64,000 bases of DNA from Oryzias latipes. Taxonomy: Eukaryota > Chordata > Actinopteri > Beloniformes > Adrianichthyidae. Where the stretch lies: the NCBI RefSeq assembly GCF_002234675.1, contig NC_019860.2, forward strand, positions 10,042,586 to 10,106,585, given 5' to 3'. Of this stretch, positions 1 through 54,595 are shown piece after piece. Position numbers and translations under genes: made by a program. The number at the start of each line of letters is the position of its first letter. Position 1 is the stretch's first letter. Below the pieces are notes generated by a model. It did no database searches, was not told the origin of the DNA, and saw only the letters and a program-made list of their open reading frames with translations.

Positions 1-478
1 AGGCTTAGACCTTTCATCCTTAACTTCTTTAAAACTGTCAAACATTCTCTTTGTGGACCAAAAGTACATCCAAGATGCCAGAATTGGGCAGTCTGTGCTA
101 CACATGCCTAACATCTTTATTCAGTCTGTTGGGAAACTCTTCCACAACAACATGAAGTACTGGAACTTACATTAAACTGTAATTATTGTGCATTCATTCA
201 TGTACACTAAACAATGAGTACTTCAATGTGTATTTCCTACCACAAGTCCAAGGGCAGAGTGAGTAATAACGGTTCCCTCACGGCATACATTACTCCTGGT
301 GCTGTACAGAAATGCAGTTTTGAGCCCATACCAAACTAAATAAAAGATAGTTTTTGGAATTTTCTTGTGAAAGATGTATGTGTGTCATAAAGATTTACCA
401 TGGTCTTTCTAACTGTGGGCTAACCAAAAAGTCATGGAGAGCAACAAAGACTAGAACTATGACCACTGGCACTTCTCA

Positions 479-550
479 GCTGTGATCGTATAGTGGTTAG
501 TACTCTGCGTTGTGGCCGCAGCAACCCCGGTTAGAATCCCGGTCACAGCA
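479..550 (+). tRNA. tRNA-His(GTG), array copy 1, T arm damaged
   Basis: The 72-nt cloverleaf has acceptor arms GCTGTGA/TCACAGC, discriminator A, and anticodon GTG in the loop TTGTGGC between CTGCG and CGCAG. The T loop reads TTAGAAT instead of TTCGAAT, and the 3' T stem reads CCCGG instead of CCGGG. The B box and T stem are therefore broken, and this is probably a pseudogene. Confidence 0.8.
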
Positions 551-1061
551 AAAGGTACAGATAAACCAAAAATGCAGTTCTTTGCAGGCTTAGACCTTTC
601 ATCCTTAACTTCTTTAAAACTGTCAAACATTCTCTTTGTGGACCAAAAGTACATCCAAGATGCCAGAATTGGGCAGTCTGTGCTACACATGCCTAACATC
701 TTTGTTCAGTCTGTTGGGAAACTATTCCACAACGGCATGAGGTACTGGAACTTACATTAAACAGTAATTATTGTGCATTCATTCATGTACACTAAACAAT
801 GAGTACTTCAATGTGTATTTCCTACCACAAGTCCAAGGGCAGAGTGAGTAATAACGGTTCCCTCACAGCATACATTACTCCTGGTGCTGTACAGAAATGC
901 AGTTTTGAGCCCTTACCAAACTTAATGAAAGATTGTTTTTGGAATTTTCTTGTGAAATATGTATGTGTCATAAAGATTTTCCATGGTTTTATAAACAGTG
1001 GTCTGACCAAAAAGTCATGGAGAGCAACAAAGACTAGAACTATGACCACTGGCACGACTCA

Positions 1062-1133
1062 GCTGTGATCGTATAGTGGTTAGTACTCTGCGTTGTGGCC
1101 GCAGCAACCCCGGTTCAAATCCGGGTCACAGCA
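1062..1133 (+). tRNA. tRNA-His(GTG), array copy 2
   Basis: All four stems pair. The only difference from the array consensus is TTCAAAT in the T loop; A replaces G57, which is still a purine. Probably folds normally. Confidence 0.88.
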
Positions 1134-1647
1134 AAAGGTACAGATAAACCAACAATGCAGTTCTTTGCAGGCTTAGACCTTTCATCCTTACCTTTTTTAA
1201 AACTGCCAAACACTCTCTTTGTGGAACAAAAGTACATCCAAGATGCCAGAATTGGGCAGTCTGTGCTATAAAGGGCCTAACATCTTTATTCAGTCTGTTG
1301 GGAAACTATTCCACAACGGCTTGAGTTACTGGAACTTACATTAAACAGTAATTATTGTGCATTCATTCATGTACACTAAACAATGAGTACTTCAATGTGT
1401 ATTTCCTACCACAAGTCCAAGGGCAGAGTGAGTAATAACGGTTCCCTCACGGCATACGTTACTCCTGGTGCTGTACAGAAATGCAGTTTTGAGCCCTTAC
1501 CAAACTTAATAAAAGATTGTTTTTGGAATTTTCTTGTGAAAGATGTATGTGTGTCATAAAGATTTACCATGGTTTTTCTAACTGTGGGCTAACCAAAAAG
1601 TCATGGAGAGCAACAAAGACTAGAACTATGACCACTGGCACTTCTCA

Positions 1648-1719
1648 GCTGTGATCGTATAGTGGTTAGTACTCTGCGTTGTGGCCGCAGCAACCCCGGT
1701 TCGAATCCGGGTCACAGCA
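1648..1719 (+). tRNA. tRNA-His(GTG), array copy 3, consensus
   Basis: Full consensus copy: acceptor GCTGTGA/TCACAGC, A box around TAGTGGTTAGTA, anticodon loop TTGTGGC, B box GGTTCGAATCC, discriminator A. No intron and no encoded CCA, as expected for a nuclear gene; the extra 5' G of tRNA-His is added after transcription in eukaryotes. Confidence 0.93.
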
Positions 1720-2232
1720 AAAGGTACAAATAAACCAAAAATGTAGTTCTTTGCAGGCTTAGACCTTTCATCCTTAACTTCATTAATACTGCCAAACACT
1801 GTCTTTGTGCACCAAAAGTACATCAAAGATGCCATAATTGGGCAGTCTGTGCTACACATGCCTAACATCTTTATTCAGTCTGTTGGGAAACTCTTCTACA
1901 ACGGCATTAGGTACTGGAACTTTCATTAAACTGTAATTATTGTGCATTCATTCATGTACACTAAACAATGAGTACTTTAATGTCTATTTCCTACCACAAG
2001 TCCAAGGGCAGAGTGAGTATTAATGGTTCCCTCACAGCATACGTTACTCCTGGTGCTGTACAGAAATGCAGTTTTGAGCCCTTACCAAACTTAATAAAAG
2101 ATTGTTTTTGGAATTTTCTTGTGAAAGATGTATGTGTGCCATAAAGATTTACCATGGTTTTTCTAACAGTGGCCTGACCAAAAAGTCATGGAGAGCAACA
2201 AAGACTAGAACTATGACCACTGGCACTTCTCA

Positions 2233-2304
2233 GCTGTGATCGTATAGTGGTTAGTACTCTGCGTTGTGGCCGCAGCAACCCCGGTTAGAATCCGGGTCAC
2301 AGCA
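2233..2304 (+). tRNA. tRNA-His(GTG), array copy 4, B-box variant
   Basis: Stems are intact. The T loop is TTAGAAT, so the invariant C56 and the B-box core are lost. This variant is shared with the copy at 479, three units away. Confidence 0.8.
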
Positions 2305-2817
2305 AAAGGTACAGATAAACCAAAAATGCAGTTCTTTGCAGGCTTAGACCTTTCATCCTTAACTTCTTTAAAACTGTCAAACATTCTGTTTGTGGACCAA
2401 AAGTACATCCAAGATGCCAGAATTGGGCAGTCTGTGCTACACATCCCTAACATCTTTGTTCAGTCTGTTGGGACACTCTTCTACAACAACATGAAGTACT
2501 GGAACTTACATTAAACAGTAATTATTGTGCATTCATTCATGTACACTGAACAATGAGTACTTCAATGTGTATTTCCTACCACAAGTCCAAGGGCAGAGTG
2601 AGTAATAACGGTTCCCTCACGGCATACATTACTCCTGGTGCTGTACAGAAATGCAGTTTTGAGCCCTTACCAAACTTAATAAAAGATTGTTTTTGGAATT
2701 TTCTTGTGAAAGATGTATGTGTGTCATAAAGATTTACCATGGTTTTTCCAACAGTGGTCTGACCAAAAAGTCATGGAGAGCAACAAAGACTAGAACTATG
2801 ACCACTGGCACTTCTCA

Positions 2818-2889
2818 GCTGTGATCGTATAGTGGTTAGTACTCTGCGTTGTGGCTGCAAATACCCCGGTTCGAATCCGGGTCACAGCA
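2818..2889 (+). tRNA. tRNA-His(GTG), array copy 5, anticodon-stem variant
   Basis: The 3' anticodon stem is TGCAA instead of CGCAG. This gives a G-U pair and a C27-A43 mismatch, and the variable region is changed to ATA. The acceptor, D and T arms are consensus. The same variant occurs at 5160 and, with more changes, at 7503. Confidence 0.82.
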
Positions 2890-3402
2890 AAAGGTACAGA
2901 TAAACCAAAAATGCAGTTCTTTGCAGGCTTAGACCTTTCATCCTTAACTTCTTTAAAACTGTCAAACATTCTCTTTGTGGACCAAAAGTACATCCAAGAT
3001 GCCAGAATTGGGCAGTCTGTGCTACACATGCCTAACATCTTTGTTCAGTCTGTTGGGAAACTCTTCTACAACAACATGAAGTACTGGAACTTACATTAAA
3101 CTGTAATTATTGTGCATTCATTCATGTACACTAAACAATGAGTACTTCAATGTGTATTTCCTACCACAAGTCCAAGGGCAGAGTGAGTAATAACGGTTCC
3201 CTCACGGCATACATTACTCCTGGTGCTGTACAGAAATGCAGTTTTGAGCCCTTACCAAACTTAATAAAAGATTGTTTTTGGAATTTTCTTGTGAAAGATG
3301 TATGTGTGTCATAAAGATTTACCATGGTCTTTCTAACTGTGGGCTAACCAAAAAGTCATGGAGAGCAACAAAGACTAGAACTATGACCACTGGCACGTCT
3401 CA

Positions 3403-3474
3403 GCTGTGATCGTATAGTGGTTAGTACTCTGCGTTGTGGCCGCAGCAACCCCGGTTCGAATCCGGGTCACAGCA
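3403..3474 (+). tRNA. tRNA-His(GTG), array copy 6, consensus
   Basis: Identical to the consensus copy at 1648 across all 72 nt. The first run of four or more T residues downstream on this strand is near 3858, almost 390 nt away. Confidence 0.93.
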
Positions 3475-3511
3475 AAAGGTACAGATAAACCAAAAATGCA
3501 GTTCTTTGCAG

Positions 3512-3832
3512 GCTTAGACCTTTCATCCTTAACTTCTTTAAAACTGTCAAACATTCTCTTTGTGGACCAAAAGTACATCCAAGATGCCAGAATTGGGCAG
3601 TCTGTGCTACACATGCCTAACATCTTTATTCAGTCTGTTGGGAAACTCTTCCACAACAACATGAAGTACTGGAATTTACATTAAACTGTAATTATTGTGG
3701 ATTCATTCATGAACACTAAACAATGAGTACTTCAATGTGTATTTCCTACTACAAGTCCAAGGGCAGAGTGAGTAATAACGGTTCCCTCACAGCATACGTT
3801 ACTCCTGGTGCTGTACAGAAATGCAGTTGTGA
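3512..3832 (+). pseudogene. A2M exon 26-intron 26-exon 27 fragment (representative array unit)
   Basis: This is the clearest unit for comparison with A2M gene 1. 3512-3666 matches exon 26 (36090-36246) and is preceded by a retained TTTGCAG acceptor. 3667-3763 matches intron 26 (shared TTCATTCATG). About 3764-3832 matches exon 27 (GAGTGAGTAATAACGG against GAGTGAGTAATGACGT). The exon 26 part is 155 nt against 157 in the gene, and it begins with a diverged stretch where the parent encodes LTTFVMKSF. The same fragment recurs in every unit, about +109 to +430 from each tRNA start. Keeping the intron shows that it came from genomic DNA and not from a retrotransposed mRNA. Confidence 0.88.
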
Positions 3833-3988
3833 GCCCTTACCAAACTTAATAAAAGACAGTTTTTGGAATTTCTCTTGTGAAAGATGTATGTGTGTCATAA
3901 TGATTTTCCATGGTTTTTCCAACTGTGGTCTAACCAAAAAGTCATGGAGAGCAAAAAAGACAAGAACTATGACCGCTGGCACGACTCA

Positions 3989-4060
3989 GCTGTGATCGTA
4001 TAGTGGTTAGTACTCTGCGTTGTGGCCGCAAAAACCCTGCTTCGTATCCGAGTCACAGCA
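3989..4060 (+). tRNA. tRNA-His(GTG), array copy 7, degenerate
   Basis: The anticodon GTG is kept, but the anticodon stem has the C27-A43 mismatch. The T arm (CCTGC, TTCGTAT, CCGAG) has two mismatches and a G-U pair. Probable pseudogene; it shares its changes with the copy at 5746. Confidence 0.75.
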
Positions 4061-4574
4061 AAAGGTCCAGATAAACCAAAAATGTAGTTCTTTGCAGGCT
4101 TAGACCTTTCATCCTTAACTTCATTAAAACTGCCAAACACTGTCTTTGTGGACCAAAAGTACATCAAAGATGCCATAATTGGGCAGTCTGTGCTACACAA
4201 GCCTAACATCTTTGTTCAGTCTGTTGGGACACTCTTCTACAACAACATGAAGTACTGGAACTTACATTAAACAGTAATTATTGTGGATTCATTCATGTAC
4301 ACTAAACAATGAGTACTTCAATGTGTTTTTCCTACCACAAGTCCAAGAGCAGAGTGAGTAATAACGGTTCCCTCACAGCATACGTTACTCCTGGTGCTGT
4401 ACAGAAATGCAGTTGTGAGCCCTTACCAAACTTAATAAAAGATAGTTTTTGGAATTTTTCTTGTGAAAGATGTATGTGTGTCATAAAGATTTACCATGGT
4501 TTTATAAACAGTGGTCTGACCAAAAAGTCATGGAGAGCAACAAAGACTAAAACTATGACCACTGGCACTTCTCA

Positions 4575-4646
4575 GCTGTGATCGTATAGTGGTTAGTACT
4601 CTGCGTTGTGGCCGCAGCAACCCCGGTTCGAATCCGGGTCACAGCA
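4575..4646 (+). tRNA. tRNA-His(GTG), array copy 8, consensus
   Basis: Consensus in every arm, with intact A and B boxes. Confidence 0.93.
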
Positions 4647-5159
4647 AAAGGTACAGATAAACCAACAATGTAATTATTTGCAGGCTTAGACCTTTCATCC
4701 TTATCTTCTTTAAAACTGTCAAACATTCTGTTTGTGGACCAAAAGTACATCCAAGATGCCAGAATTGGGCAGTCTGTGCTACACATGCCTAACATCTTTA
4801 TTCAGTCTGTTGGGAAACTCTTCTACAACGGCATTAGGTACTGGAACTTTCATTAAACTGTAATTATTGTGCATTCATTCATGTACACTAAACAATGAGT
4901 ACTTCAATGTCTATTTCCTACCACAAGTCCAAGGGCAGAGTGAGTATTAATGGTTCCCTCACAGCATACGTTACTCCTGGTGCTGTACAGAAATGCAGTT
5001 TTGAGCCCTTACCAAACTTAATAAAAGATTGTTTTTGGAATTTTCTTGTGAAAGATGTATGTGTGCCATAAAGATTTACCATGGTTTTTCTAACTGTGGT
5101 CTGACCAAAAAGTCATGGAGAGCAACAAAGACTAGAACTATGACCACTGGCACTTCTCA

Positions 5160-5231
5160 GCTGTGATCGTATAGTGGTTAGTACTCTGCGTTGTGGCTGC
5201 AAATACCCCGGTTCGAATCCGGGTCACAGCA
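5160..5231 (+). tRNA. tRNA-His(GTG), array copy 9, anticodon-stem variant
   Basis: Same TGCAA anticodon-stem variant as the copy at 2818; the acceptor, D and T arms are intact. Confidence 0.82.
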
Positions 5232-5745
5232 AAAGGTACAGATAAACCAAAAATGCAGTTCTTTGCAGGCTTAGACCTTTCATCCTTAACTTCTTTAAAA
5301 CTGTCAAACATTCTCTTTGTGGACCAAAAGTACATCCAAGATGCCAGAATTGGGCAGTCTGTGCTACACATGCCTAACATCTTTATTCAGTCTGTTGGGA
5401 AACTCTTCCACAACAACATGAAGTACTGGAACTTACATTAAACTGTAATTATTGTGGATTCATTCATGAACACTAAACAATGAGTACTTCAATGTGTATT
5501 TCCTACTACAAGTCCAAGGGCAGAGTGAGTAATAACGGTTCCCTCACAGCATACGTTACTCCTGGTGCTGTACAGAAATGCAGTTGTGAGCCCTTACCAA
5601 ACTTAATAAAAGACATTTTTTGGAATTTCTCTTGTGAAAGATGTATGTGTGTCATAATGATTTTCCATGGTTTTTCCAACTGTGGTCTAACCAAAAAGTC
5701 ATGGAGAGCAAAAAAGACAAGAACTATGACCGCTGGCACGACTCA

Positions 5746-5817
5746 GCTGTGATCGTATAGTGGTTAGTACTCTGCGTCGTGGCCGCAAAAACCCTGCTTC
5801 GTATCCGAGTCACAGCA
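5746..5817 (+). tRNA. tRNA-His(GTG), array copy 10, degenerate, U33 lost
   Basis: It has the same broken T arm as 3989. The anticodon loop also reads TCGTGGC, so the universally conserved U33 before the anticodon is C. Probable pseudogene. Confidence 0.72.
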
Positions 5818-6331
5818 AAAGGTCCAGATAAACCAAAAATGTAGTTCTTTGCAGGCTTAGAACTTTCATCCTTAACTTCATTAAAACTGCCAAACACTGT
5901 CTTTGTGGACCAAAAGTACATCAAAGATGCCATAATTGGGCAGTCTGTGCTACACATGCCTAACATCTTTGTTCAGTCTGTTGGGAAACTCTTCTACAAC
6001 AACATGAAGTACTGGAACTTACATTAAACAGTAATTATTGTGCATTCATTCATGTACACTAAACAATGAGTACTTCAATGTGTTTTTCCTACCACAAGTC
6101 CAAGGGCAGAGTGAGTAATAACGGTTCCCTCACAGCATACGTTACTCCTGGTGCTGTACAGAAATGCAGTTGTGAGCCCTTACCAAACTTAATAAAAGAT
6201 AGTTTTTGGAATTTTTCTTGTGAAAGATGTATGTGTGTCATAAAGATTTACCATGGTTTTATAAACAGTGGTCTGACCAAAAAGTCATGGAGAGCAACAA
6301 AGACTAAAACTATGACCACTGGCACTTCTCA

Positions 6332-6403
6332 GCTGTGATCGTATAGTGGTTAGTACTCTGCGTTGTGGCCGCAGCAACCCCGGTTCGAATCCGGGTCACA
6401 GCA
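6332..6403 (+). tRNA. tRNA-His(GTG), array copy 11, consensus
   Basis: Consensus in every arm. The following unit has a T6 run near 6463, about 60 nt downstream, which could act as a Pol III terminator. Most other units lack one. Confidence 0.93.
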
Positions 6404-6917
6404 AAAGGTACAGATAAACCAACAATGTAATTATTTGCAGGCTTAGACCTTTCATCCTTACCTTTTTTAAAACTGCCAAACACACTCTTTGTGGACCAAA
6501 AGTACATCCAAGATGCCAGAATTGGGCAGTCTGTGCTATAAAGGGCCTAACATCTTTATTCAGTCTGTTGGGAAACTATTCCACAACGGCTTGAGGTACT
6601 GGAACTTACATTAAATAGTAATTATTGTGCATTCATTCATGTACACTAAACAATGAGTACTTCAATGTGTATTTCCTACCACAAGTCCAAGGGCAGAGTG
6701 AGTAATAACGGTTCCCTCACGGCATACATTACTCCTGGTGCTGTACAGAAATGCAGTTTTGAGCCCTTACCAAACTTAATAAAAGATTGTTTTTGGAATT
6801 TTCTTGTGAAATATGTATGTGTGTCATAAAGAATTTCCATGGTTTTTCCAACAGTGGTCTGACCAAAAAGTCATGGAGAGCAACAAAGACTAGAACTATG
6901 ACCACTGGCACTTCTCA

Positions 6918-6989
6918 GCTGTGATCGTATAGTGGTTAGTACTCTGCGTTGTGGCCGCAGCAACCCCGGTTCGAATCCGGGTCACAGCA
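6918..6989 (+). tRNA. tRNA-His(GTG), array copy 12, consensus
   Basis: Consensus in every arm, with intact A and B boxes. Confidence 0.93.
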
Positions 6990-7502
6990 AAAGGTACAGA
7001 TAAACCAAAAATGCAGTTCTTTGCAGGCTTAGACCTTTCATCCTTATCTTCATTAAAACTGCCAAACACTGTCTTTGTGGACGAAAAGGGCATCAAAGAT
7101 GCCATAATTGGGCAGTCTGTGCTACACATGCCTAACATCTTTATTCAGTCTGTTGGGAAACTATTCCACAACGGCTTGAGGTACTGGAACTTACATTAAA
7201 CTGTAATAATTGTGCATTCATTCATGTACACTAAACAATGAGTACTTCAATGTGTATTTCCTACCACAAGTCCAAGGGCAGAGTGAGTAATAACGGTTCC
7301 CTCACGGCATACATTACTCCTGGTGCTGTACAGAAATGCAGTTTTGAGCCCTTTCCAAAATTAATAAAAGATTGTTTTTGGAATTTTCTTGTGAAATATG
7401 TATGTGTGTCATAAAGATTTTCCATGGTTTTATAAACAGTGGTCTGACCAAAAAGTCATGGAGAGCAACAAAGACTAAAACTATGACCACTGGCACTTCT
7501 CA

Positions 7503-7574
7503 GCTGTGATCGTATAGTGGTTAGTACTCTGCGTTGTGGCTGCAAATACCCTGGTTCGTATCCGGGTCACAGCA
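7503..7574 (+). tRNA. tRNA-His(GTG), array copy 13, variant
   Basis: It has the TGCAA anticodon-stem variant, a G-U pair in the T stem (CCTGG/CCGGG), and TTCGTAT in the T loop. It may still fold, but it departs from consensus in two arms. Confidence 0.78.
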
Positions 7575-8088
7575 AAAGGTCCAGATAAACCAAAAATGTA
7601 ATTCTTTGCAGGCTTAGACCTTTCATCCTTACCTTTTTTAAAACTGCCAAACACACTCTTTGTGGAACAAAAGTACATCCAAGATGCCAGAATTGGGCAG
7701 TCTGTGCTATAAAGGGCCTAACATCTTTATTCAGTCTGTTGGGAAACTATTCCACAACGGCTTGAGTTACTATAACTTACATTAAACAGTAATTATTGTG
7801 CATTCATTCATGTACACTAAACAATGAGTACTTCAATGTGTATTTCCTACCACAAGTCCAAGGGCAGAGTGAGTAATAACGGTTCCCTCACGGCATACAT
7901 TACTCCTGGTGCTGTACAGAAATGCAGTTTTGAGCCCTTACCAAACTTAATAAAAGATTGTTTTTGGAATTTTCTTGTGAAAGATGTATGTGTGTCATAA
8001 AGATTTACCATGGTTTTTCCAACAGTGGTCTGACCAAAAAGTCATGGAGAGCAACAAAGACTAGAACTATGACCACTGGCACTTCTCA

Positions 8089-8160
8089 GCTGTGATCGTA
8101 TAGTGGTTAGTACTCTGCGTTGTGGCCGCAGCAACCCCGGTTTGAATCCGGGTCACAGCA
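8089..8160 (+). tRNA. tRNA-His(GTG), array copy 14, B-box variant
   Basis: Stems are consensus. The T loop is TTTGAAT, so C56 is T and the B-box core is weakened. Confidence 0.82.
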
Positions 8161-8674
8161 AAAGGTACAGATAAACCAAAAATGCAGTTCTTTGCAGGCT
8201 TAGACCTTTCATCCTTAACTTCTTTAAAACTGTCAAACATTCTCTTTGTGGACCAAAAGTACATCCAAGATGCCAGAATTGGGCAGTCTGTGCTACACAT
8301 GCCTAACATCTTTATTCAGTCTGTTGGGAAACTCTTCCACAACAACATGAAGTACTGGAATTTACATTAAACTGTAATTATTGTGGATTCATTCATGAAC
8401 ACTAAACAATGAGTACTTCAATGTGTATTTCCTACTACAAGTCCAAGGGCAGAGTGAGTAATAACGGTTCCCTCACAGCATACGTTACTCCTGGTGCTGT
8501 ACAGAAATGCAGTTGTGAGCCCTTACCAAACTTAATAAAAGACAGTTTTTGGAATTTCTCTTGTGAAAGATGTATGTGTGTCATAATGATTTTCCATGGT
8601 TTTTCCAACTGTGGTCTAACCAAAAAGTCATGGAGAGCAACAAAGACTAGAACTATGACCGCTGGCACGACTCA

Positions 8675-8746
8675 GCTGTGATCGTATAGTGGTTAGTACT
8701 CTGCGTTGTGGCCGCAGCAACCCCGGATCGAATCCGGGTCACAGCA
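8675..8746 (+). tRNA. tRNA-His(GTG), array copy 15, T54 variant
   Basis: Stems are consensus. The T loop starts ATCGAAT, so T54 is A. This is shared with the next copy at 9259. Confidence 0.82.
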
Positions 8747-9258
8747 AAAGGTCCAGATAAACCAAAAATGTAGTTCTTTGCAGGCTTAGACCTTTCATCC
8801 TTAACTTCATTAAAACTGCCAAACACTGTCTTTGTGCACCAAAAGTACATCAAAGATGCCAGAATTGGGCAGTCTGTGCTACACATGCCTAACATCTTTA
8901 TTCAGTCTGTTGGGAAACTCTTCTACAACGGCATTAGGTACTGGAACTTTCATTAAACTGTAATTATTGTGCATTCATTCATGTACACTAAACAATGAGT
9001 ACTTCAATGTGTATTTCCTACCACAAGTCCAAGGGCAGAGTGAGTAATAACGGTTCCCTCACAGCATACGTTACTCCTGGTGCTGTACAGAAATGCAGTT
9101 GTGAGCCCTTACCAAACTTAATAAAAGATAGTCTTTGGAATTTTTCTTTTGAAAGATGTGTGTGTCATAAAGATTTTCCATGGTTTTTCCAACCGTTTTC
9201 TGACCAAAAAGTCATGGAGAGCAACAAAGACTAGAACTATTACCGCTGGCACTTGTCA

Positions 9259-9330
9259 GCTGTGATCGTATAGTGGGTAGTACTCTGCGTTGTGGCCGCA
9301 GCAACCCCGGATCGAATCCGGGTCACAGCA
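9259..9330 (+). tRNA. tRNA-His(GTG), array copy 16, last in array
   Basis: It shares the T54-to-A change with 8675. The D arm reads TAGTGGGTAG instead of TAGTGGTTAG, which damages the A box. The array stops about 210 bp after this copy. Confidence 0.8.
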
Positions 9331-9541
9331 AAAGGTCCAGATAAACCAAAAATGTAGTTCTTTGCAGGCTTAGACCTTTCATCCTTAACTTCATTAAAAC
9401 TGCCAAACCCTGTCTTTGTGGACCAAAAGTACATCCAAGATGCCAGAATTGGGCAGTCTGTGCTACACATGCCTAACATATTTATTCAGTCTGTTGGGAA
9501 ACTCTTCCACAATGGCATGAAGTACTGGAACTTACATTAAA

Positions 9542-10560
9542 CTTGTCTTTCAGAGAGCACACTGCTGTCAAGCCAGCCGTCAGTCAGATCTGCGGTGTCA
9601 AATGAGCCGCTCCTGAAGTTTCAGTGCTCTCGCATTCTCAGCTTTACGGGAACTTAGCGACCGTGGCTGAAATCCCTTTCCGGTTTTCAAAATAACTTTA
9701 CAACACTGAAAAGCCAAATGAATGATTAAGGGAAAAAATACACACTCTTCTTATATTAATCAAATGAAGAATGATTATGAAAAAGGCTGAGATAGGTTTA
9801 GGTGTGTATGAACATACTCCCAACCATATAGCCCATTCATTTTATTTTAATTGTAAATTTAACTTATTTTTCACATGTGGACATGTTATGATGTAGGATT
9901 TTTGAGAATCAGTGCAAACACTTCATAATGAAATATAGAAGTGTAGACTTGATCTAAATGTCCAAAACTGTTTGGTATTTGTCACAACATACCATCTTAT
10001 GACAAAGATGCCATGTTTGAGACACTGTAGAAAAATACTTTACCATAATCCAGGCCAGTTGCTCCTTTAATTCTCTTCAGGACAATGTTGGCTACTCAGA
10101 AAATCATTTCCAGGCACTTTTACTGTAGAAAATTTGAGTTATTTATGTTTGAAATCCTCAATATTTAACATTTTCACAAGTGCTGAGCGTTTTTTTATTG
10201 ACAAAGATGCTACGTTTGAGACACTGCAGTTTAATATTTTGCCATAATCCAGGCCAACTGTTCCTTTTAGTCTCTTCAGGACTATGTTCGCTACTGAGAC
10301 TGTCATTTCCAGACACTTTTACTCTAGAAAATTGGAGTTATTCATGTTTGAAATCCCAAGTATTTTATTACTCTGTTGGATACACAAACTGACATTTCCG
10401 AAAACAGAGCTGAAGCTTTAACTGTCTCTACCAATCATTCTTGGAGGCTTAATCTTACGTCATCAGTCTGACCAATCAGAAGTGGTTAAAGTTTTCACTT
10501 CATTTAGCTCAAAAAGTCAAATTTCCCCAAACCCATCCTCAAACACGATCTGAAGGATCT
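9542..10560. other. Non-coding sequence; contains a direct repeat
   Basis: No gene seen. About 10001-10170 and 10200-10368 form a diverged direct repeat, about 199 bp apart. Both contain ACAAAGATGC, GTTTGAGACACTG, CATAATCCAGGCCA, TCTCTTCAGGAC and TTTGAAATCC. The segment could be the leader or LTR region of the retroelement remnant that follows, but no TG...CA ends or primer site could be fixed. Confidence 0.5.
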
Positions 10561-21890: not shown

Positions 21891-21892
21891 TA

Positions 21893-23695: not shown

Positions 23696-23719
23696 CAGCG
23701 CAGCCTGCACGAGCCTGAC

Positions 23720-35700: not shown

Positions 35701-38700
35701 ATTTGATGTAAATCACAGATGTAGTGACAACAGTAATGATTGAAATGAACATGGTCTTTGCTTCAACAAGTAAAAACTTAATGGGGCCTGACACAAAGCC
35801 TTGTGGAACTCCACATGACAGATATGTTGTCCAATAAATATGTTGCAACAAATGAATATAGAATCCCAGTTAGATCAAAAATGCCATAGTTACAAAGTCC
35901 TTCCTTGAATGTTAAGGTTTTATGGTATTGTTTAAACTTATTTTTTTGTTTGTTTACTATCCAGGAGATTTCAATATTCTGTTAGCCTGTCATGAGCTGA
36001 GGATGTTGGACCATCATATTTTCTGATGCACTTGCTTTCCACTTTAACCACCTTTCGTGTGATGTGTATTTTGACTTCTCTTTCTGTAGGCTCACCACTT
36101 TTGTCATGAAATCCTTCAACGCTGCAAAACAGTACATCTTTGTGGACCAGACGTACATCGAAGATGCCAGAACTTGGCTGTCTGGACTCCAGAAGCTTGA
36201 TGGATGCATTCAGTCTGTTGGGAAACTCTTCCACAACGGCATGAAGGTTTGGAACTTCAATTAAACTGTGATTGTTTTGGGTTCATTCATGTAACTAAAA
36301 AATATTTTCAAAGTATATTTTGTCACGCCTGTCCCATTTCCAGGGGGGAGTGAGTAATGACGTGTCCCTGACGGCCTACGTTGCTGCTGCCATGCTGGAG
36401 CTGGATGGAAACGCCACAGTGAGCCCTAAACCTAACCCCTACTAACTCAACTGGAAAAAAAGTCTTTGAAATATTTGTTGTGAAACTTGAAAAGCAATAA
36501 TTTCTTATCATTGTACAAAAAAAGAAACAGAATGTTTAAAATATCTTACAAGCTCAAAAATGTCAGTTTCAGTACATTGAGCCTGCTAAATAGTTAGAAG
36601 ATTAATTCTTCTTTAGAGGCATGACTACAAGGGTCCATATATTTAAAATACAATGATGCAAATCCTCAAAGTGAAGTGTCAAATTATAGAAAAATCCCAT
36701 TTTAGTTTCTTCAGATGTTGTTTGTTTCATGTTGGGGTTTTATTAAACCCTATCTGTAGAGATTGTCCATTGAAAATTACTATTAACTCTCACATGGGGT
36801 TGTTATTCCTTTACAAAAAATATACTACCGTTCCTGAAATCTCACAAGGTTAAAATCTGTCCAATCAGGTGTTTAATGAGGGCCCTTTTAAATTATTGTA
36901 ATTTTAGTCTTTAATCTATGTGATTAAACAACTAGACTGGCAGTGTAGAATTCTGTTTTGTTCATCTGGTATTGATGTCAAGGGACTGACATGAATGGGA
37001 TGCAAGTTGCAAGACACAAGTACACATAATCTGTATAAATATAATGCATTATTCATTCACTATTGTTAATCTTCATGGACTAAACTTCACCTTGTCGTGT
37101 GCATTTTTACCCAGAATCCAGTGGTTCAGAACTGCCTGAAATGTCTGAGAACTGCAGTGTCGGGTAAAATAACCAATCTGTACACCGTCGCCCTGCTGTC
37201 CTACACCTACACCCTGGCTGGAGACCAGGACATGAGGAGCAAACTCGTCACCCTCCTGGACCAGAAGTCCATCAATGAAGGTAAGACAGAAGATCAAGAC
37301 TTTCAACAGTGGCAAAAAGCTGCTTAAAAGACATGTCGCAGACAATGTGATATTGGTAAAATGGAAAAAAAAAATAACTTGGCTCTGAATTATAAAGTCA
37401 TCTGCCCAACTCTAAGAAGTGGCTAATAAAAAGAATCATCACAAATATGACCCCCACCTTGATGGAGCTCTGCAGATTTTATACTGTTTTATTTGTTATT
37501 TAATACTATGACTTCAAATGAAAGCAGGATAGATGGGATGACCCACATGAAAATCATTTGTTTTTGGATTCCAGGAGGTACTCGTCACTGGAAGAGAGAT
37601 GGTGCTCCTGAAACAGGACTGGACTCAGTGGAGGTGGAGATGACATCCTATGTGCTCTTGGCTCTGCTTTCCGGTCCATCTCTGCCAGGCTTTGGTTTGG
37701 ATTATGCCGCCGGCATCGTGTATTGGCTCGCTCAGCAGCAGAATCCGTTTGGCGGCTTCTCGTCCACACAGGTAGCTCCTCCTACATTCATGTGGCGCTA
37801 ACAAAGAGGCTTGAAGAGCAGTCCCTCACTGCAACTTTTTTGCTGCACAGGACACAGTCGTGGCCCTCCAAGCTCTGGCCAAGTATGCTACTGCCACCTT
37901 CAGTCTGGAAGGCAGTACTACAGTCACTGTGACTTCAGTGGGTGGTCTGAACAAATACTTCACTGTAAATAAGGACAACAGACTGCTTTACCAAGAGGAG
38001 AAACTGACTGAGATTCCTGGAGAGTACACAATTAAAGCTGAGGGTCAGAGTTGTGTGCTGCCACAGGTACAGACAAGTAGAAATCAATCACAGTCATGGA
38101 AGTCCATGTGTTCAGAGAATGTGCTGTTGATGGTTTAAATGTTGTCTTTCCAGATCTCTTTGTTCTACAACATCCCCCCTCCTTCCGACTTTTCTGCCTT
38201 TCAAATCTCTACCAACACTAGTGGTCGATGTGACATTCCCCGACCAGAGTTCATGCTCTTTGTGCACGTTGAGTAAGTAGAAATCATCTTTAAACCCAAA
38301 GTGTATCAAAAGCATAATGCCTCTTTAGATGTTCTGGTTCTGTTTGAGAGTTCTGCTGGGTTTGATTCCCACAGGTTTCAGGGCAGACGAGAGGAAACCA
38401 ACATGGTGGTGATCAACATTAAGCTGCTGTCTGGTTACATTCTGCAGGACAACTCTTTGAAAATGGTGAGACAACATCCTTGCTAGTCCAGACTAGCTTT
38501 TCTTATTTGTGTTGACAACATGTGTGTTTGTGTCACAGCTGAAGGAAAGCCGCTTGGTGAAGCGTGTGGACGTAGAGGAAGGTTACATCAACATCTACCT
38601 GGACGGGGTAAGAAGCTTTGAAGCTTTGTGGTTCATGAAGCATTTGGTTGTTTTGTATTCTCATGCATGTGTCCCTGTTTGTACTTTGCAGTTAAAGAAG

Positions 38701-40197: not shown

Positions 40198-40555
40198 GAG
40201 TCTTTGTGGACGACAAGTACATCCAAGATGCCAGAATTGGGTATTCTGTGCTACACATGCCTAACATCTTTATTCAGTCTGTTGGGAAACTCTTCCACAA
40301 TGGCATGAGGTACTGGAACTTACATTAAACTGGAATTATTTTCGGTTCATTCATCTACACTAAACAATGAGAACTTCAATGTGTATTTCCTACAACAAGT
40401 CCAAGGGCAGAGTGAGTAATAACGGTTCCCTCACGGCATACGTTGCTCCTGGTGCTGTACGGAAACGCAGTTGTGAGCCCTTACCCAACTGAATAAAAGA
40501 TAGTCTTTGGAATTTTTCCTGTGAAAGATGTAGGTGTGTCATAAAGATTTTCCAT
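40198..40555 (+). pseudogene. A2M exon 26-27 fragment, solo, ancestral-like
   Basis: The same fragment as in the array units, but without a tRNA in front. It begins inside exon 26 at TCTTTGTGGAC. At diagnostic sites it agrees with the A2M gene where the array does not: TTTTCGGTTCATTC (gene TTTTGGGTTCATTC, array ATTGTGCATTC), TACGTTGCTCC (gene TACGTTGCTGC, array TTACTCC), and GGAAACGCAG (gene GGAAACGCC, array AGAAATGCAG). It therefore looks like an intermediate between gene and array. Confidence 0.82.
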
Positions 40556-42340
40556 GGTTTTAATCCTCCAATCCTGTGGACTGTTCAGGTGCTGTTCGTG
40601 TGAACAGTGCATGTTTTTTGTGCTCACCGAACTCGGTTTTCCATTTTTTTTTTCTGCAAAGATCCTCTGTATCCGTAAAGGAAGGTCTAAACAGTGCTTT
40701 AATTACAATGTGGCTTAAGAGCTCTGTACAACAGCATCATCGGTACATCACCTTACAAGAAAATACCTCACAAGACTCTTACCATACGCACAACGATTAC
40801 AGCTTCTGCTTTCAACAAGCCTAAAGGGAACTCTCAAACACACCGGTACTCTCTTTATGATTGCATTCATTCCTCTCTATGGCCCTCTCCCTGGGAATGG
40901 TTCACCCAAAGAGCCACAGCAAACGTATAGAAACACATGATGATAGCTTTAAACATCTATGGCAGGGGTCGGGAACCTATGGCTCGCGAGCCATATATGG
41001 CTCTTTTGATGGTCACATGTGGCTCGCAGACAAATCTTTAATTATTCTTTTTTTTTTCATTAGACCAGTCCTTCTCGGGCGCGATGCAATGCCAGAGGCG
41101 CGCAGTAGTACCGGTGCTTGGAGAGAAAACTATCAGTTTACAAATATCCAGTATTTCACAGAGTTTGAACCATCCGGAAACCTGTGAATTGCCGTGCCTA
41201 AAACTGCGCGCTCCCGTCTCTGAGAAAGAGCGCGCAGTTGCGGAGACGGGATGTGTGAGGAAGAAAGCAGAGGGTGGGGGTGGAGTTGTGGGCAAAGGTA
41301 GCAGGTGAATCGCGTAGGGATTGTAATAACGTAAAACCCGCTGCCCGTCACTCACTGCAGTGTGTGAGTGTGTGTTTGTCTCCACGTCTGCATGTGAGCC
41401 GTCTTTGTCACATCTACAGAACATTCAGACCTACGATCCCGTTTAAAGTCTCAACGCCTGCACGAAGCAGAAACTCACCACGTATCAACCAGACTAGACA
41501 ATCAGCAAAACTACCACGAGAAACACTCATCATTTATCAGCAACAGCATAACAATGTTATTCAAAATAATCCACAGACTTATTGTACTTTAAAAATGTTG
41601 AAATTACATCAAATCCACACATTCACTTGTATATTTAGTTTTAAACATATTGTCGCGGACTGAGTTTAACTTGGCTGTTGAGCCGCGTTAAAAGTTCTGG
41701 AGTTCATTGAACGCATCGATCAAGCAGAGATCTGATTGGCCCTCAGTTTCTGTCGCTCAGCCTGTTGTTAGGTAGTTTGGACCAATGGGGTTCAGCTATG
41801 GGCCGAATAAGGGAAATGGGAGGGCTGGAGCGGGAGGGGGGGAATGTAAAGTTGGGAGAAGCGCTCTCTCTCGTCTCGGCGGCAGAGATTCAGGAGTTGC
41901 TGAATTAATTGTTCGCCGTTTATTGCGGTCTGCAGTCACCAGAATAAAGAACCTTAAAAGAGGTTAAGTCTCCGTTGCTCAGTGTGGGAAAGGGACACTA
42001 CATTATTGTATGGCTCTTTCGAAATTACATTTAAAAATATGTGGCGTTTACGGCTCTCTTGGCCAAAAAGGTTCCCGACCCCTGATCTATGGCCTTTCGT
42101 CACCAAGTTCCCATCCAAGTGTCAAGGCAACACACAATTGTGTGCATTTGTGATATCTCAGTGTCAGATTCCTCTCTCAGTGAAAACATGAATGAATAGG
42201 TAATAACGTATACTACTTGTGCAGTGCTTTGCTACCTCCTTAGACGGCTTGCTTTAAATTCACAGTCCCATTCACCTATGGACACACACATTCGCACACT
42301 GCTGAATATTGGCACCAACCTTAAAGTACCAGGACCTTAA
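40556..42340 (+). repeat. Repeat X, copy B (interrupted by a hAT and cut by piggyBac)
   Basis: Starts TAATCCTCCAATCCTGTGG. It continues to the hAT element at 40963-42084, resumes at 42085, and is cut at the TTAA at 42337-42340, where the piggyBac left end begins. The same family lies inverted at 48420-52083. No coding function was recognised. Confidence 0.75.
40963..42084. mobile_element. Non-autonomous hAT element, 1122 bp
   Basis: Terminal inverted repeats CAGGGGTCGGGAACC...GGTTCCCGACCCCTG with a perfect 8-bp target duplication ATCTATGG (40955-40962 and 42085-42092). Empty sites exist in repeat X copies A (near 40115) and C (near 48935). There is no transposase frame inside, only short open stretches. 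Confidence 0.92.
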
Positions 42341-47920: not shown

Positions 47921-48119
47921 TAAAATATGTCCAATACAAGAGGCCTTCAGCTCTGATCTGTTTGCTCAGCTGTTGGACAGCAGAAGAAAAAAAGGAAAAA
48001 CGAATAAATAAACCCCTGGAGTGCTTTTATTCACCGCTGAAATTAAACATATGGCTAATTAGAACTTAAGGGACCTACATATCTAACTGTCCAATTCCAG
48101 TTTAATGTAAGTTCCAGTA

Positions 48120-48274
48120 CTTCATGCCGTTGTGGAAGAGTTTCCCAACAGACTGAATAACGATGTTAGGCATGTGTCGCACAGACTGCCCAATTCTGGC
48201 ATCTTGGATGTACTTTTGGTCCACAAACACAGTGTTTGGCAGTTTTAAAGAAGTTAATGATGAAAGTTGAAAGC
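48120..48274 (-). pseudogene. A2M exon 26 fragment, inverted solo copy
   Basis: Minus-strand match to exon 26 of A2M, with an intact CTGCAG acceptor-like start at 48275-48280 and the end at ATGAAG (48120-48125). It lies 3' of the minus-strand tRNA-His at 48311-48382 in the same order as the array units. It stops shortly after exon 26, near 48095. Confidence 0.82.
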
Positions 48275-48310
48275 CTGCAGGGAATTACATTGTGGTTTGT
48301 TTGGACCTTT

Positions 48311-48382
48311 TGATGTGACCCGGATTCGAACCGGGGTTGCTGCGGCCACAACGCAGAGTACTAACCACTATACGATCACAGC
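48311..48382 (-). tRNA. tRNA-His(GTG), inverted solo copy 1
   Basis: The minus strand reads GCTGTGATCGTATAG..., anticodon GTG, intact D, anticodon and T arms (TTCGAAT), discriminator A. The 3' acceptor is TCACATC, so there is one C2-T71 mismatch. The A and B boxes are consensus. Confidence 0.87.
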
Positions 48383-49211
48383 TGACAAGTGGGAGCGGTC
48401 AGAGTTCCAGTCAAAAACATTTTCCCATCCTCTCTTTACTAAGTATCAGCCTAGCACGGCATGTGGGTAGAAACTGGCTTTGCTTACCATACAGAGAACA
48501 CCAAATACATCTTGGTACACCAAGGTGTGAGACAAGACACCAACCTTCAAGAAGAAAACTCTATCATTGCAGCTGTCTTTACTGAGTCTGAAAGTTACAC
48601 CAAAATGAAGACAAAAACAACAGGTTCATTCTCACCTTGCCTTCCCATGTGTCCAAGTGTCCTTGGGCAAGCCATCGAATCCCGTTAAGGTCCTGCTACT
48701 TTAAGGTTGGTGCCAATATTCAGCAGTGTGTGAATGTGTGTGTCCATAGGTGAATGGGACTGTGAATTTAATGCAAGCTGTCTAAGGAGGTAGCAAAGCA
48801 CTGCACAAGTACTATACGTTATTACCTATTCATTCATGTTTTCACTGAGAGAGGAATCTGACATTGAGATGAACACAAATGCACACAATTGTGTGTTGCC
48901 TTGACACTTGGATGGGAACTTGGTGACGAAAGGCCATAGATGTTTAAAGCTGTCATCATGTGTTCCTGTACGTTTGCTGTGGCTCTTTGGTGGAACCATA
49001 CCCAGGGAGAGGGCCATAGAGAGGAATGAATGCAATCATAAAGAGAGTACCGGTGTGTTTGAGAGTTCCCTTTAGGCTTGTTGAAAGCAGAAGCTGTAAT
49101 CGTTGTGCGTATGGTAAGAGTATTGTGAGGTATTTTCTTGTAAGGTGATGTACCGATGATGCTGTTGTACAGAGCTCTTAAGCCACATTGTAATTAAAGT
49201 ACTGTTTAGAC

Positions 49212-51943
49212 CAGGGGTGCCCAAACTTTTTTCCTCAAAGGGCCAAAATCTAAATGTGATCGTGGACCGTGGGCCAAATACAAAACGTTTTTTGTATGTC
49301 ATTAAATAAAAGCAGAAAACAAAGAATATGCTTTAATGTGTTTATTTTGATTCTGTATTCATCAAGGTAACATACAAAAATAAACATTCTTTCAAACCAT
49401 CAAACATAAAAGCAAGGCCTCACTGGCAATTTTCAACTAAAAAACAAAAACAAACTAAAACTAACTTTTTTCCAATGAAAACAGCAAACTGCGATCCTTA
49501 ATGAGAGACATGGAGCTGGTCTTTTGACTTCATCAGTGACTGAATGTTGGGCTGCAGCTTACTCACTGATAGTGTTAGTATGTCTTGCAAGTGTGAGTCT
49601 GTGAGGATCCCCCTGAGTTTGATCTTGTTCAGGTTCATGAGACTAAATGTTTGCTCACAAATGTAGGTGCTGCCAAACAGAGATAGCATCACTTGTGCAT
49701 TTTTTCTCATCTGTGGGTATCTTTGTTTTGACACATGTGGATAAAAATCCCTCAAGGGTAGTGATACAAATTTGCGTCTTAGCTCTGTGTCACATTGAAA
49801 CTCAATCAACTCCATCTGCAAATGCTCTGGAACTGAGTCGGGACTCACGCTGAAGGGCTGAGAAAAAAGCTCCATGTCACCTGCAGTCTTCTTAAAGTCC
49901 ACAAAGCGCAAATCAAACTCCTTATTTAAGTTGCTGAGAAGTTCTCCATATTCTGGCAACCTGTCCACCTCCACATTCACGTCTCTCAGGCTGGGGAAGT
50001 GTGCCAAGTTTCCTAAAGAGACAAAGTCAAATAAGAATGTGTCCATTAGTATAATTGGCCCTACTATGAGGCACATAAGCTACAGGACACAAAAGACAAC
50101 AGAGCAATGAAAGCAAACCCACAAAGACAAACAGTTACGTTTTCTGTCAAACAGGCGTAAGCACCACGGACAGCGACACATCACAGCGACGGACACACAT
50201 GGAGCAGCACGTGTTACAATCACAAATAACAAACAGCCAAAAGTCTGTGTGCAGCATGTCATTGACTTACCTGCTGAAAGATGCCGGCAGAGTAGTTGCA
50301 GCTTCATTTGGAAAGCCTTGATGTGGTCAAACAGCTCCGTTATGATCTGTTCTTTGCCTTGAAGTTTAACATTCAGATTGTTGAGCAGGTCGTTGATGTC
50401 CACCATAAAGGCCACGTCGAAAATCCATCTTTTATCGGAGGGGATTTTTGTGTCCCTGCTCGCACTCGACAGAAACTCCGCGATAAGTTGGCGCAACTCA
50501 AAAAATCTTTTGAGCACAGTCCCCCTGCTCAGCCAGCGCACCTCCTGATGGTAAAGAATATCTTTGTATTGCGCATCAACTTCATCCAAAAATGCTCTGA
50601 ACTGGCGGTGTGAGAGTGCCTTTGAGCGGATGCAGTTAATGATTTTAACGACATCGCGCACAACGTCTGCCAGTCCGATCGTCTTTGCACACAGCTGTTC
50701 CTGGTGCAGGATACAGTGGTATTGCGCTACCTTTCCCCCACACTCTGAAACTTTTTGGGAAATGAGAGCAGTGAGGCCAGCTTTTTTCCCAATCATGGCA
50801 GGTGCACCATCAGTTGTTATTCCAAGCATTTTGTCCCAACTCAAGTTATATTTGTCCAGGACTCTTGAAACCGCCGCAAACAAATCTTCGCCTTTTGTCG
50901 TCCCTCGCAGCGTCTCAAGTCCCGCCAACTCCTGTGTTATTTTCATGTCAGCGTTAATTCCCCGAACAAAAACCAAAAGCTGCGCTGAATCAGAAATGTC
51001 TGTGCTCTCATCACATGCCAGTGAGAAAGCAACAAAGTCTCTTGACTTTACTGTTAACTGATCTCTAATGTCCCGAGACAAATCTTCAACGCGGCGGGTC
51101 ACTGTGTTGCGCGAGAGGCTAATTTGGGAAAAAACTCTTTCTTGGGAAGGGCACATTATTGAAGCAGCTGTGGACAGGCACTCCTTAACAAAATCTCCCG
51201 TTGAAAACGATCTCCCACTCTTTGCAATTAGCGCCGAAATTTCGTAGCTGGCCCGTGTGGCGCAGTCTTGTGCTGTCGAGGGCCTCTTGAGGGTGGCTTG
51301 CTGTGACCGAAGTTTCGATAGCAGCTCGCTCGATTTTTTCTTTCGCGCCTCACCTTTGTATCTGGAGAAGACCGCATGTTTAGTTTCGTAGTGGCGACGT
51401 ATATTGTACTCTTTCAGTACAGCCACGGATTGCTGGCAAATAAGACAAACAGCCTTAGAAGAGATTTTCTGCAAAAAAATAATCATCCTCCCACTTTTGT
51501 TTAAAATGCCTCTTATCCGTGTGCCATTGCCGTTGTCGTTCCATCTTAACAAACTGAAAAAGTCTTAGAGTCGTAAATCTTCTCCAAAATGTAAGGATTG
51601 CCCTATGGTGCGGTGCGCTTTATGTGTTTGTGAGACTTCGGTAAAGAGGACGTGAGAGAGGACAGCACAAGAACGGTATGCAGAGCAGTGAGGACGTAAA
51701 AGAAGACACTCAGTGCATGGGGTTGAGAGGGGGTGGCAGCGGTGGGCAGCAAAGGTGCTAACAGCGCCATCTGGAGAACAAAAGTAAATTACAGTCATAG
51801 ACTTTTCACCATCATAGACAATGGATGTGAGGTTAAGGGGTTTTACAAAAACACGGCGGCTTGCGCAGCCACGACTCGGCGGGCCAGAAGAAAACCTTTG
51901 GCGGGCCAAATTTTGCCCGCGGGCCCCACTTTAGGCACCCCTG
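49212..51943 (-). mobile_element. Autonomous-type hAT element, 2732 bp
   Basis: Terminal inverted repeats CAGGGGTGCC...GGCACCCCTG with a perfect 8-bp target duplication GTTTAGAC (49204-49211 and 51944-51951). The same spot is uninterrupted in repeat X copies A (near 39640) and B (near 40687), both reading GGTCTAAACAGTGC on the plus strand. It carries a two-exon transposase gene on the minus strand. Confidence 0.95.
49498..51544 (-). pseudogene. hAT transposase (BED finger, ZBED/GTF2IRD2-like), one frameshift
   Basis: Minus strand, two exons: 51544-50271 and 50012-49498, joined GCAG/GTAAGT...TTTAG/GAAAC in phase (SAGNLAHFPSL). Order: ATG at 51544 (MERQRQWHTDKRHFKQKWED), BED zinc finger (CLICQQS, HYETKH), RNase H-like core (LACDESTDISDSAQLLVF, ITTDGAPAMIG, CILHQEQLCAK), and a C-terminal hAT dimerisation domain (MLSLFGSTYICEQTFSLMN). 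A T7 run near 51475 puts the first ~23 codons out of frame with the rest, consistent with a one-base slip from T6. No other interruption was seen over about 600 codons. Confidence 0.85.
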
Positions 51944-52146
51944 GTTTAGACCGTACTTTACGGATACAGAGGGTCTTTGCAGAATAAAAAATGGATAACC
52001 GAGTTCGGTGAGCACAAGAAAACATGCACTGTTCACACGAACAGCACCTGAACAGTCCACAGGATTGGAGGATTAAAACCATGGAAAATCTTTATGACAC
52101 ACCTACATCTTTCACAGGAAAAATTCCAAAGACTATCTTTTATTCA

Positions 52147-52480
52147 GTTGGGTAAGGGCTCACAACTGCGTTTCCGTACAGCACCAGGAGCAACGTATGC
52201 TGTGAAGGAACCGTTATTACTCACTCAGCCCTTGGACTTGTGGTAGGAAATACACATTGAAGTACTCATTGTTTAGTGTACATGAATGAATGCACAATAA
52301 TTACAGTTTAATGTAAGTTCCAGTACTTCATGTTGTTGTGGAACAATTCCCAACAGACTGAATAAAAATGTTAGGCATGTGTAGCATAGACTGCCCAATT
52401 CTGGCATCTTGGATGTACTTTTTGTCCACAAAGAGAGTGTTTAGTAGTTTTTAAAGAGTTAAGGATGAAAGGTCTAAGCT
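52147..52480 (-). pseudogene. A2M exon 26-27 fragment, inverted, ancestral-like
   Basis: Minus strand: exon-26-like 52480-52326, intron-26-like, then exon-27-like 52240-52147, directly downstream of the tRNA-His at 52517-52588. It shares gene-like states with the 40.2-kb copy (ACGTTGCTCC, GGAAACGCAG) and leads into repeat X at 52083 by the same junction (CCATGGTTTTAATCC). Confidence 0.85.
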
Positions 52481-52516
52481 TGCAAAGAATTACATTTTTG
52501 GTTTTTCTGTACCTTT

Positions 52517-52588
52517 TGCTGTGACCCGGATTCGAACCGGGGTTGCTGCGGCCACAACGCAGAGTACTAACCACTACACGATCACAGC
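52517..52588 (-). tRNA. tRNA-His(GTG), inverted solo copy 2
   Basis: The minus strand reads GCTGTGATCGTGTAGTGG..., with one A-to-G change in the D arm. The anticodon stem-loop, T arm (TTCGAAT) and acceptor GCTGTGA/TCACAGC are consensus, discriminator A. Likely foldable. Confidence 0.9.
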
Positions 52589-54576: not shown

Positions 54577-54595
54577 CCCCCCCCCCCCCCCCCCC
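54577..54595. repeat. Poly-C tract (C19)
   Basis: Nineteen consecutive C residues; length is likely to be unstable or assembly-sensitive. Confidence 0.95.

What the first reader, a model, noticed from the sequence alone, without database searches (positions are those of the whole stretch)
1..9541. A satellite-like array built from a tRNA-His gene fused to unspliced A2M exons
Sixteen tRNA-His(GTG) loci are regularly spaced every ~585 bp. The spacer in each unit is a degenerate genomic copy of exon 26, intron 26 and exon 27 of the A2M gene that sits 14-27 kb away on the same chromosome. tRNA clusters are common in fish, but a unit that joins a tRNA gene to a captured piece of a neighbouring immune gene is not something I know to be described. 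Five copies (1648, 3403, 4575, 6332, 6918) are perfect tRNA genes, so the array may supply tRNA-His. The rest may be passengers amplified by unequal crossing-over.
Basis: partly seen in the sequence, partly recalled or inferred. Interest (0 to 1): 0.85.

Follow-up and report, generated by a model that had tools for sequence, protein, structure and literature searches.

The report
Tandem tRNA-His array with A2M-derived spacers
A row of sixteen histidine tRNA genes alternates with worn copies of a piece of a neighbouring immune gene; it is a real but probably ordinary tandem tRNA cluster that happened to amplify next to a gene fragment.

Summary
Window 1-9543 is a head-to-tail array of ~585-bp units with sixteen tRNA-His(GTG) loci, five identical and perfect; it is cut by the window start, so sixteen is a minimum. 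The spacer is a decayed unspliced copy of an A2M exon-intron-exon stretch (36079-36485): 73% identity, E 7e-45; score 200 against at most 35 for 60 shuffles.

Three single pieces lie outside the array, between two A2M genes: 52075-52596(-) and 48093-48412(-) with tRNA, 40200-40692(+) without. So the fusion also exists as single copies and probably preceded the array.

Units are recombining mosaics (p = 0.0005). Inside the array the tRNA is as variable as the spacer (pi 0.052 and 0.054); nine of sixteen B boxes are altered; thirteen of sixteen have no TTTT within 260 bp downstream.

Best reading: a local tRNA/gene-relic fusion amplified by unequal exchange, mostly passengers, a few copies able to make tRNA. 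The spacer's origin is unusual; tandem tRNA clusters are known. The host genome and other animal genomes could not be searched.

The parts
1..9543 (+). tandem array of ~585-bp tRNA-His/A2M-like units; truncated at the window start, right edge at 9543
479..550 (+). tRNA-His U1, B box changed, one broken T-stem pair
1062..1133 (+). tRNA-His U2, stems intact, B box changed (G56A, numbered along the 72-nt gene)
1648..1719 (+). tRNA-His U3, perfect
2233..2304 (+). tRNA-His U4, stems intact, B box changed (C55A)
2818..2889 (+). tRNA-His U5, broken anticodon-stem pair
3403..3474 (+). tRNA-His U6, perfect
3989..4060 (+). tRNA-His U7, three broken pairs, B box changed, probable pseudogene
4575..4646 (+). 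tRNA-His U8, perfect
5160..5231 (+). tRNA-His U9, broken anticodon-stem pair
5746..5817 (+). tRNA-His U10, three broken pairs, B box changed, probable pseudogene, not called by ARAGORN or Rfam
6332..6403 (+). tRNA-His U11, perfect
6918..6989 (+). tRNA-His U12, perfect
7503..7574 (+). tRNA-His U13, broken anticodon-stem pair, B box changed
8089..8160 (+). tRNA-His U14, stems intact, B box changed (C55T)
8675..8746 (+). tRNA-His U15, stems intact, B box changed (T53A)
9259..9330 (+). tRNA-His U16, stems intact, B box changed (T53A), T19G
36079..36485 (+). A2M gene exon-intron-exon stretch (TED domain) homologous to the spacer
40200..40692 (+). single A2M-like piece without tRNA; about 90-92% identical to array spacers up to 40561, then a continuation that the array lacks
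48093..48412 (-). single composite copy: tRNA-His (48311-48382, one broken acceptor pair) plus the first half of the A2M-like piece
52075..52596 (-). single composite copy: tRNA-His (52517-52588, stems intact) plus the A2M-like piece, continuing into the same sequence as 40562-40692
49212..51943 (-). hAT-like DNA transposon with terminal inverted repeats and an 8-bp target duplication, inserted in the inverted copy of the 40.2-42.3 kb segment; uninterrupted site at about 40.69 kb

Best explanation
A tRNA-His gene came to lie about 30 bp upstream of an unspliced, partial copy of an A2M paralog in the A2M gene neighbourhood (fusion shown; how it formed is inferred). That composite also exists as single copies, and one such copy was probably duplicated head to tail. 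The join links a point ~515 bp into the composite to tRNA upstream sequence, and this gave the ~585-bp unit. Unequal exchange and gene conversion between units then expanded the array and shuffled variants (mosaics shown, process inferred). Most copies are passengers that drift; a few intact copies may still be transcribed by Pol III (inferred). The A2M-derived spacer has no function beyond being carried along and giving sequence identity for recombination (inferred).
For: Unit structure and A2M homology across exon, intron and exon. Single composites outside the array at 48.1 and 52.1 kb, and a tRNA-less A2M-like piece at 40.2 kb; 52.1 and 40.2 kb share a continuation of about 130 bp past the array's join. 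Near-identical units (U6/U9/U14, U7/U10), and incompatible site pairs rarer among neighbouring sites, 0.164 against 0.360 expected, p = 0.0005, the smallest value 2000 permutations can give (64 sites, 15 units). tRNA diversity equals spacer diversity, 0.052 against 0.054 (15 full units); 7 of 37 overlapping 72-nt spacer stretches have at least five consensus-identical units, as the tRNA has. The right edge unit U16 shares the upstream bases CTTGTCA with both outside tRNAs, as expected for a less homogenised edge.
Against: The tRNA was kept when array and outside copies diverged: 1 of 72 changes in each outside tRNA against 30 of 439 and 18 of 217 in the rest (p = 0.050 and 0.028; pooled 0.0028, the two copies being related). 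So at least the founding lineage was probably under constraint. Within the array, diversity inside the tRNA is very uneven (positions 1-38 and 64-72: 1 variable site of 47; positions 39-63: 12 of 25), which simple drift does not predict well (P = 0.00075 and 0.04 under random placement, B box P = 0.026; stretches chosen after seeing the data). That the single copies are ancestral rather than offshoots of the array is inferred, not shown.
Confidence: 0.72

Rival explanations
1. The array is a functional tRNA-His supply cluster: copies are kept for gene dosage, and the A2M-like spacer is neutral filler.
For: Five of 16 array copies are perfect and five more have all stems intact; the tRNA changed less than its surroundings between the array and the two outside copies; positions 1-38 and 64-72 have 1 variable site of 47; large tRNA clusters are common in some teleosts (PMC2888827, passages).
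Against: Overall tRNA diversity inside the array equals the spacer's; nine of sixteen B boxes are altered; no TTTT within 260 bp downstream in thirteen of sixteen units. In zebrafish embryos CpG methylation is near-complete for tRNA genes in the large clusters (PMC11574265, passages); this is only an analogy.
Confidence: 0.15
2. The composite is a young tRNA-derived SINE-like element: a tRNA-His promoter drives a read-through RNA whose body is the A2M segment, copied by retroposition and later caught in a tandem array.
For: tRNA head plus unrelated body; homology of the outside copies starts 8 and about 30 bp upstream of the tRNA; no early TTTT in most units, so a long Pol III RNA is possible.
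Against: The 52.1 kb copy runs on past the unit into sequence shared with 40.2 kb, and the outside copies lie together in one local inverted duplication. No target duplication or A-rich tail was seen by eye in the flanks printed; this was not tested systematically. Genome-wide copy number could not be tested.
Confidence: 0.06
3. The array is an assembly artefact, or has the wrong copy number.
For: Tandem arrays are error-prone in assemblies (general knowledge); no reads were available.
Against: Most unit pairs differ by 3-8% in ordered mosaic patterns, and composites with different flanks lie elsewhere in the window.
Confidence: 0.05

Closest known systems
Teleost tRNA gene clusters (stickleback, zebrafish; Bermudez-Santana et al. 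2010, PMC2888827, passages seen)
   Same: many tDNAs within 1000 nt, nearly all zebrafish pairs parallel, pseudogenes interspersed, clusters of fifty or more members reported in teleosts
   Different: here one isoacceptor only, with a regular 585-bp period and a spacer traceable to a protein-coding gene; the passages seen do not describe spacers
Arabidopsis tRNA clusters (PMC10701932, passages seen)
   Same: tRNA-Cys units of about 0.42 kb with variable copies and a pseudogene; low expression of one boundary copy. For tRNA-Pro clusters, genes and pseudogenes are said often to overlap introns of genes on the opposite strand, so contact between tRNA clusters and other genes is not new
   Different: no captured exon-intron-exon spacer in the passages seen; marks of transposable elements reported for tRNA-Cys
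Human 1q23.3 tRNA VNTR (Darrow and Chadwick 2014, PMC4041453, abstract and section list seen)
   Same: tandem repeat carrying tRNA genes, 9-43 copies, unstable
   Different: 7.3-kb GC-rich units that bind CTCF; no captured exon mentioned in the abstract
Entamoeba tRNA arrays (PMC2652664, start of abstract in the search listing)
   Same: tRNA genes in tandem array units
   Different: spacers are short tandem repeats; almost all tRNA genes are in arrays

Membership tests
tRNA gene cluster (homogeneous, as defined in PMC2888827) | neighbouring tDNAs within 1000 nt of each other | tested here: met
   583-586 bp spacing, 16 loci
tRNA gene cluster (homogeneous, as defined in PMC2888827) | same isoacceptor (parallel orientation is common, not required) | tested here: met
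   16 of 16 with anticodon GTG, all on the + strand
Tandem (satellite-like) array | head-to-tail units with concerted evolution | tested here: met
   15 full units, near-identical blocks and mosaics
Satellite DNA in the strict sense | long, abundant, heterochromatic arrays | not testable with these tools
   own genome could not be reached
tRNA-derived SINE | dispersed copies with target-site duplications and a defined 3' tail | tested here: inconclusive
   three local pieces, a flank shared beyond the unit by two of them; no target duplication seen by eye; genome not searched
Functional tRNA gene | intact cloverleaf with A and B boxes | tested here: met
   5 of 16 array copies perfect, Rfam 60.8 bits; 6 of 16 have a broken stem pair and 9 of 16 an altered B box
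Functional tRNA gene | Pol III terminator (four T suffice in humans, PMC5356446) shortly after the gene | tested here: not met
   first TTTT at +60 in 3 of 16, +266 in 2 of 16 and +353 to +395 in 11 of 16; TTCTTT at about +28 in 14 of 16, its strength untested
A2M gene copy (pseudogene fragment) | homology across exon and intron to an A2M gene | tested here: met
   226 of 309 columns; a 2-base gap in the first exon-like part and an 8-base gap in the second break the frame

The most novel reading that the evidence does not exclude
Because most units have no TTTT before about +353, Pol III starting at the intact tRNA-His genes may read through into the A2M-derived spacer and make a family of long chimeric RNAs, tRNA-His joined to sense A2M exon sequence, beside the A2M genes they resemble. 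The repeated hits in the B box would then be a way to quiet surplus copies.
Probability: 0.05. Interest if true: 0.75.

Novelty: new variant of a known kind. Interest (0 to 1): 0.36.

Why it matters
It gives a clear case in which the spacer of a tRNA array can be traced to a known kind of gene nearby, with single-copy composites still present outside the array. That makes the steps fusion, first duplication and homogenisation readable, and lets tRNA decay be compared with a neutral spacer inside the same unit. It does not by itself show a new mechanism.

Tried and rejected
Excess of perfect copies as a sign of selection: rejected, since 7 of 37 overlapping 72-nt spacer stretches have at least five consensus-identical units. 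Whole-tRNA purifying selection in the array: not seen, though diversity is uneven within the tRNA. A2M-like spacer as coding sequence: rejected because of gaps of 2 and 8 bases in the exon-like parts. Chance match to A2M: rejected. Joint unit in viral contigs: 28-base junction pattern, 0 matches; one unit against phage records, no match at E 1e-5; neither collection is expected to hold animal DNA. A2M exon numbering, species identity and genome-wide copy number were not tested. Papers: nine searches, with 20 of 55, 8 of 11, 15 of 80, 7 of 7, 6 of 6, 1 of 1, 8 of 320, 2 of 2 and 10 of 24 papers listed. Only named A2M (alpha-2-macroglobulin with tRNA gene, tandem and teleost); it listed one paper, on a ciliate genome, which I did not open. 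No listed title or abstract start described a tRNA/A2M unit. Five papers were opened, for passages or abstract only. Only open-licence papers are held and most lists were partial, so this is not proof of absence.
Full report
What is there. Bases 1-9543 hold a head-to-tail array. Sixteen tRNA-His(GTG) loci start every 583-586 bp on the + strand. ARAGORN finds 15 of the 16, and two more outside the array on the - strand at 48311-48382 and 52517-52588. Rfam finds 17 in the window, 15 of them in the array; the locus at 5746 is seen only by alignment. Five array copies are identical and perfect. Base 1 lies within a unit, so the array continues beyond the window and its size is unknown. The right edge, at 9543, falls inside the intron-like part.

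The A2M match. The spacer of the unit at 3403 aligns to A2M at 226 of 309 columns (73%, E 7e-45); the longer alignment spans 36079-36485. The other full units and the partial one at the window start match at 72-76%; after the last tRNA only the first 213 bp remain, 82% identical over 131 nt. The score of 200 compares with at most 35 for 60 shuffles. The A2M side is a real gene: 36088-36246 translates to a TED-domain exon that matches alpha-2-macroglobulin chains (PDB 7voo, E 3e-9). Of ten open frames scanned from 22.7 to 38.8 kb, six match A2M domains in order from the bait region at 29.3 kb to the receptor-binding domain at 38.8 kb, and four match nothing. The match covers exon, intron and exon, so the copy was made from unspliced sequence. 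Gaps of 2 and 8 bases in the exon-like parts break the frame.

Age and source. A second A2M gene lies at about 53-64 kb and is 88% identical to the first over their longest aligned piece, 5.2 kb; other pieces range from 81 to 92%. The spacer is about 27% diverged from the first gene. If clocks are similar, the captured piece is older than this gene duplication or came from another paralog. The matching exons of the second gene would lie beyond the window, so this could not be settled. Identity is uneven along the match: the longest exact run shared with A2M is 15-30 nt in array units and 39 nt in the copy at 48.1 kb.

Copies outside the array. Three more pieces lie between the two A2M genes: 52075-52596(-) with tRNA and A2M-like part, 48093-48412(-) with tRNA and the first half, and 40200-40692(+) without tRNA. 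The 40.2 and 52.1 kb copies share a continuation of about 130 bp past the point where array units join tRNA upstream sequence. They belong to an inverted duplication in which one side was later split by a hAT-like transposon (49212-51943) with an 8-bp target duplication; the uninterrupted site is visible at about 40.69 kb. The composite therefore exists as single copies, and the array's join looks derived; that order is inferred.

How the array evolves. Spacers differ pairwise by 0.4% to 9.4% over shared columns. U6, U9 and U14 are nearly identical, as are U7 and U10. Nearest neighbours change along the unit, and incompatible site pairs are rarer among neighbouring sites than expected (0.164 against 0.360, p = 0.0005; 64 sites, 15 units). 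This is what unequal exchange and conversion leave behind.

Is the tRNA under constraint? Between the array consensus and the outside copies, probably: 1 of 72 tRNA changes in each against 30 of 439 and 18 of 217 elsewhere (p = 0.050 and 0.028, pooled 0.0028); between the two outside copies 2 of 72 against 28 of 216 (counts, p = 0.008). These copies are related, so the tests are not independent. Within the array as a whole, no: pi is 0.052 in the tRNA and 0.054 in the spacer (15 full units). Five consensus-identical copies of 15 is not exceptional. Nine of sixteen B boxes are altered, and six of sixteen array tRNAs have a broken stem pair. Inside the tRNA, 47 positions hold 1 variable site and 25 positions hold 12; random placement gives P = 0.00075 and 0.04, and 0.026 for the B box, but the stretches were chosen after looking.

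Transcription. [quoted passage not shown] The first TTTT lies at +60 in 3 of 16 units, +266 in 2 of 16, and +353 to +395 in 11 of 16. A TTCTTT at about +28, in 14 of 16, falls where the A2M gene has the pyrimidine tract before its splice site. Whether it stops Pol III is untested. Read-through into A2M-like sequence is possible but not shown.

Comparison. Large, parallel tRNA clusters are known in some teleosts (PMC2888827, passages), and small single-tRNA tandem units are known in Arabidopsis, where tRNA-Pro clusters are also said to overlap introns of other genes (PMC10701932, passages). In zebrafish embryos, tRNA genes in the large clusters are almost fully methylated at CpG (PMC11574265, passages), which fits a silent-passenger reading here by analogy only. 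The host was not identified by any tool: a fish is likely from the transposon and A2M content, but this is inference.

Verdict. Observation confirmed; the fusion is real, lies in an A2M neighbourhood and probably preceded the present array. The best reading is a tandem tRNA cluster whose spacer came from an A2M relic, mostly passengers. Interest is moderate.

Noticed in passing
22548-33514 and 53065-64000: Two A2M genes in tandem, 81-92% identical in the aligned pieces, the second cut by the window end.
   Followed up: partly
39631-42341 and 48684-52596: Local inverted duplication between the two A2M genes that carries the single composite copies, with extra inserts on each side.
   Followed up: partly
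49212-51943: hAT-like transposon on the - strand: zf-C2H2_12 hit and a DUF4371 hit below its cut-off, terminal inverted repeats, 8-bp target duplication, uninterrupted site at about 40.69 kb. The type name is recalled.
   Followed up: yes
43124-44743: 540-codon open frame with DDE_Tnp_1_7 (E 2e-72), a piggyBac-type transposase (type name recalled).
   Followed up: no
20270-21894: Tc1/Sleeping Beauty-type transposon with an uninterrupted 334-codon frame and inverted ends 95% alike.
   Followed up: no
13265-13915: Weak DUF1759 hit on the - strand (26.2 bits, cut-off 25.4), perhaps a remnant of a BEL/Pao-type retroelement (type recalled).
   Followed up: no
10000-10365: Short tandem repeat, period 199 bp, 1.8 copies, just right of the array.
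   Followed up: no
1-9543, tRNA positions 39-63 of each unit: The 3' anticodon stem, variable loop and T arm form the most variable 25-nt stretch of the unit, while positions 1-38 and 64-72 are almost invariant; several different changes hit the B box.
   Followed up: partly
48093-48412: This copy shares a 39-nt exact run with the A2M exon although the match as a whole is far less similar; a later conversion is one possible reason.
   Followed up: no
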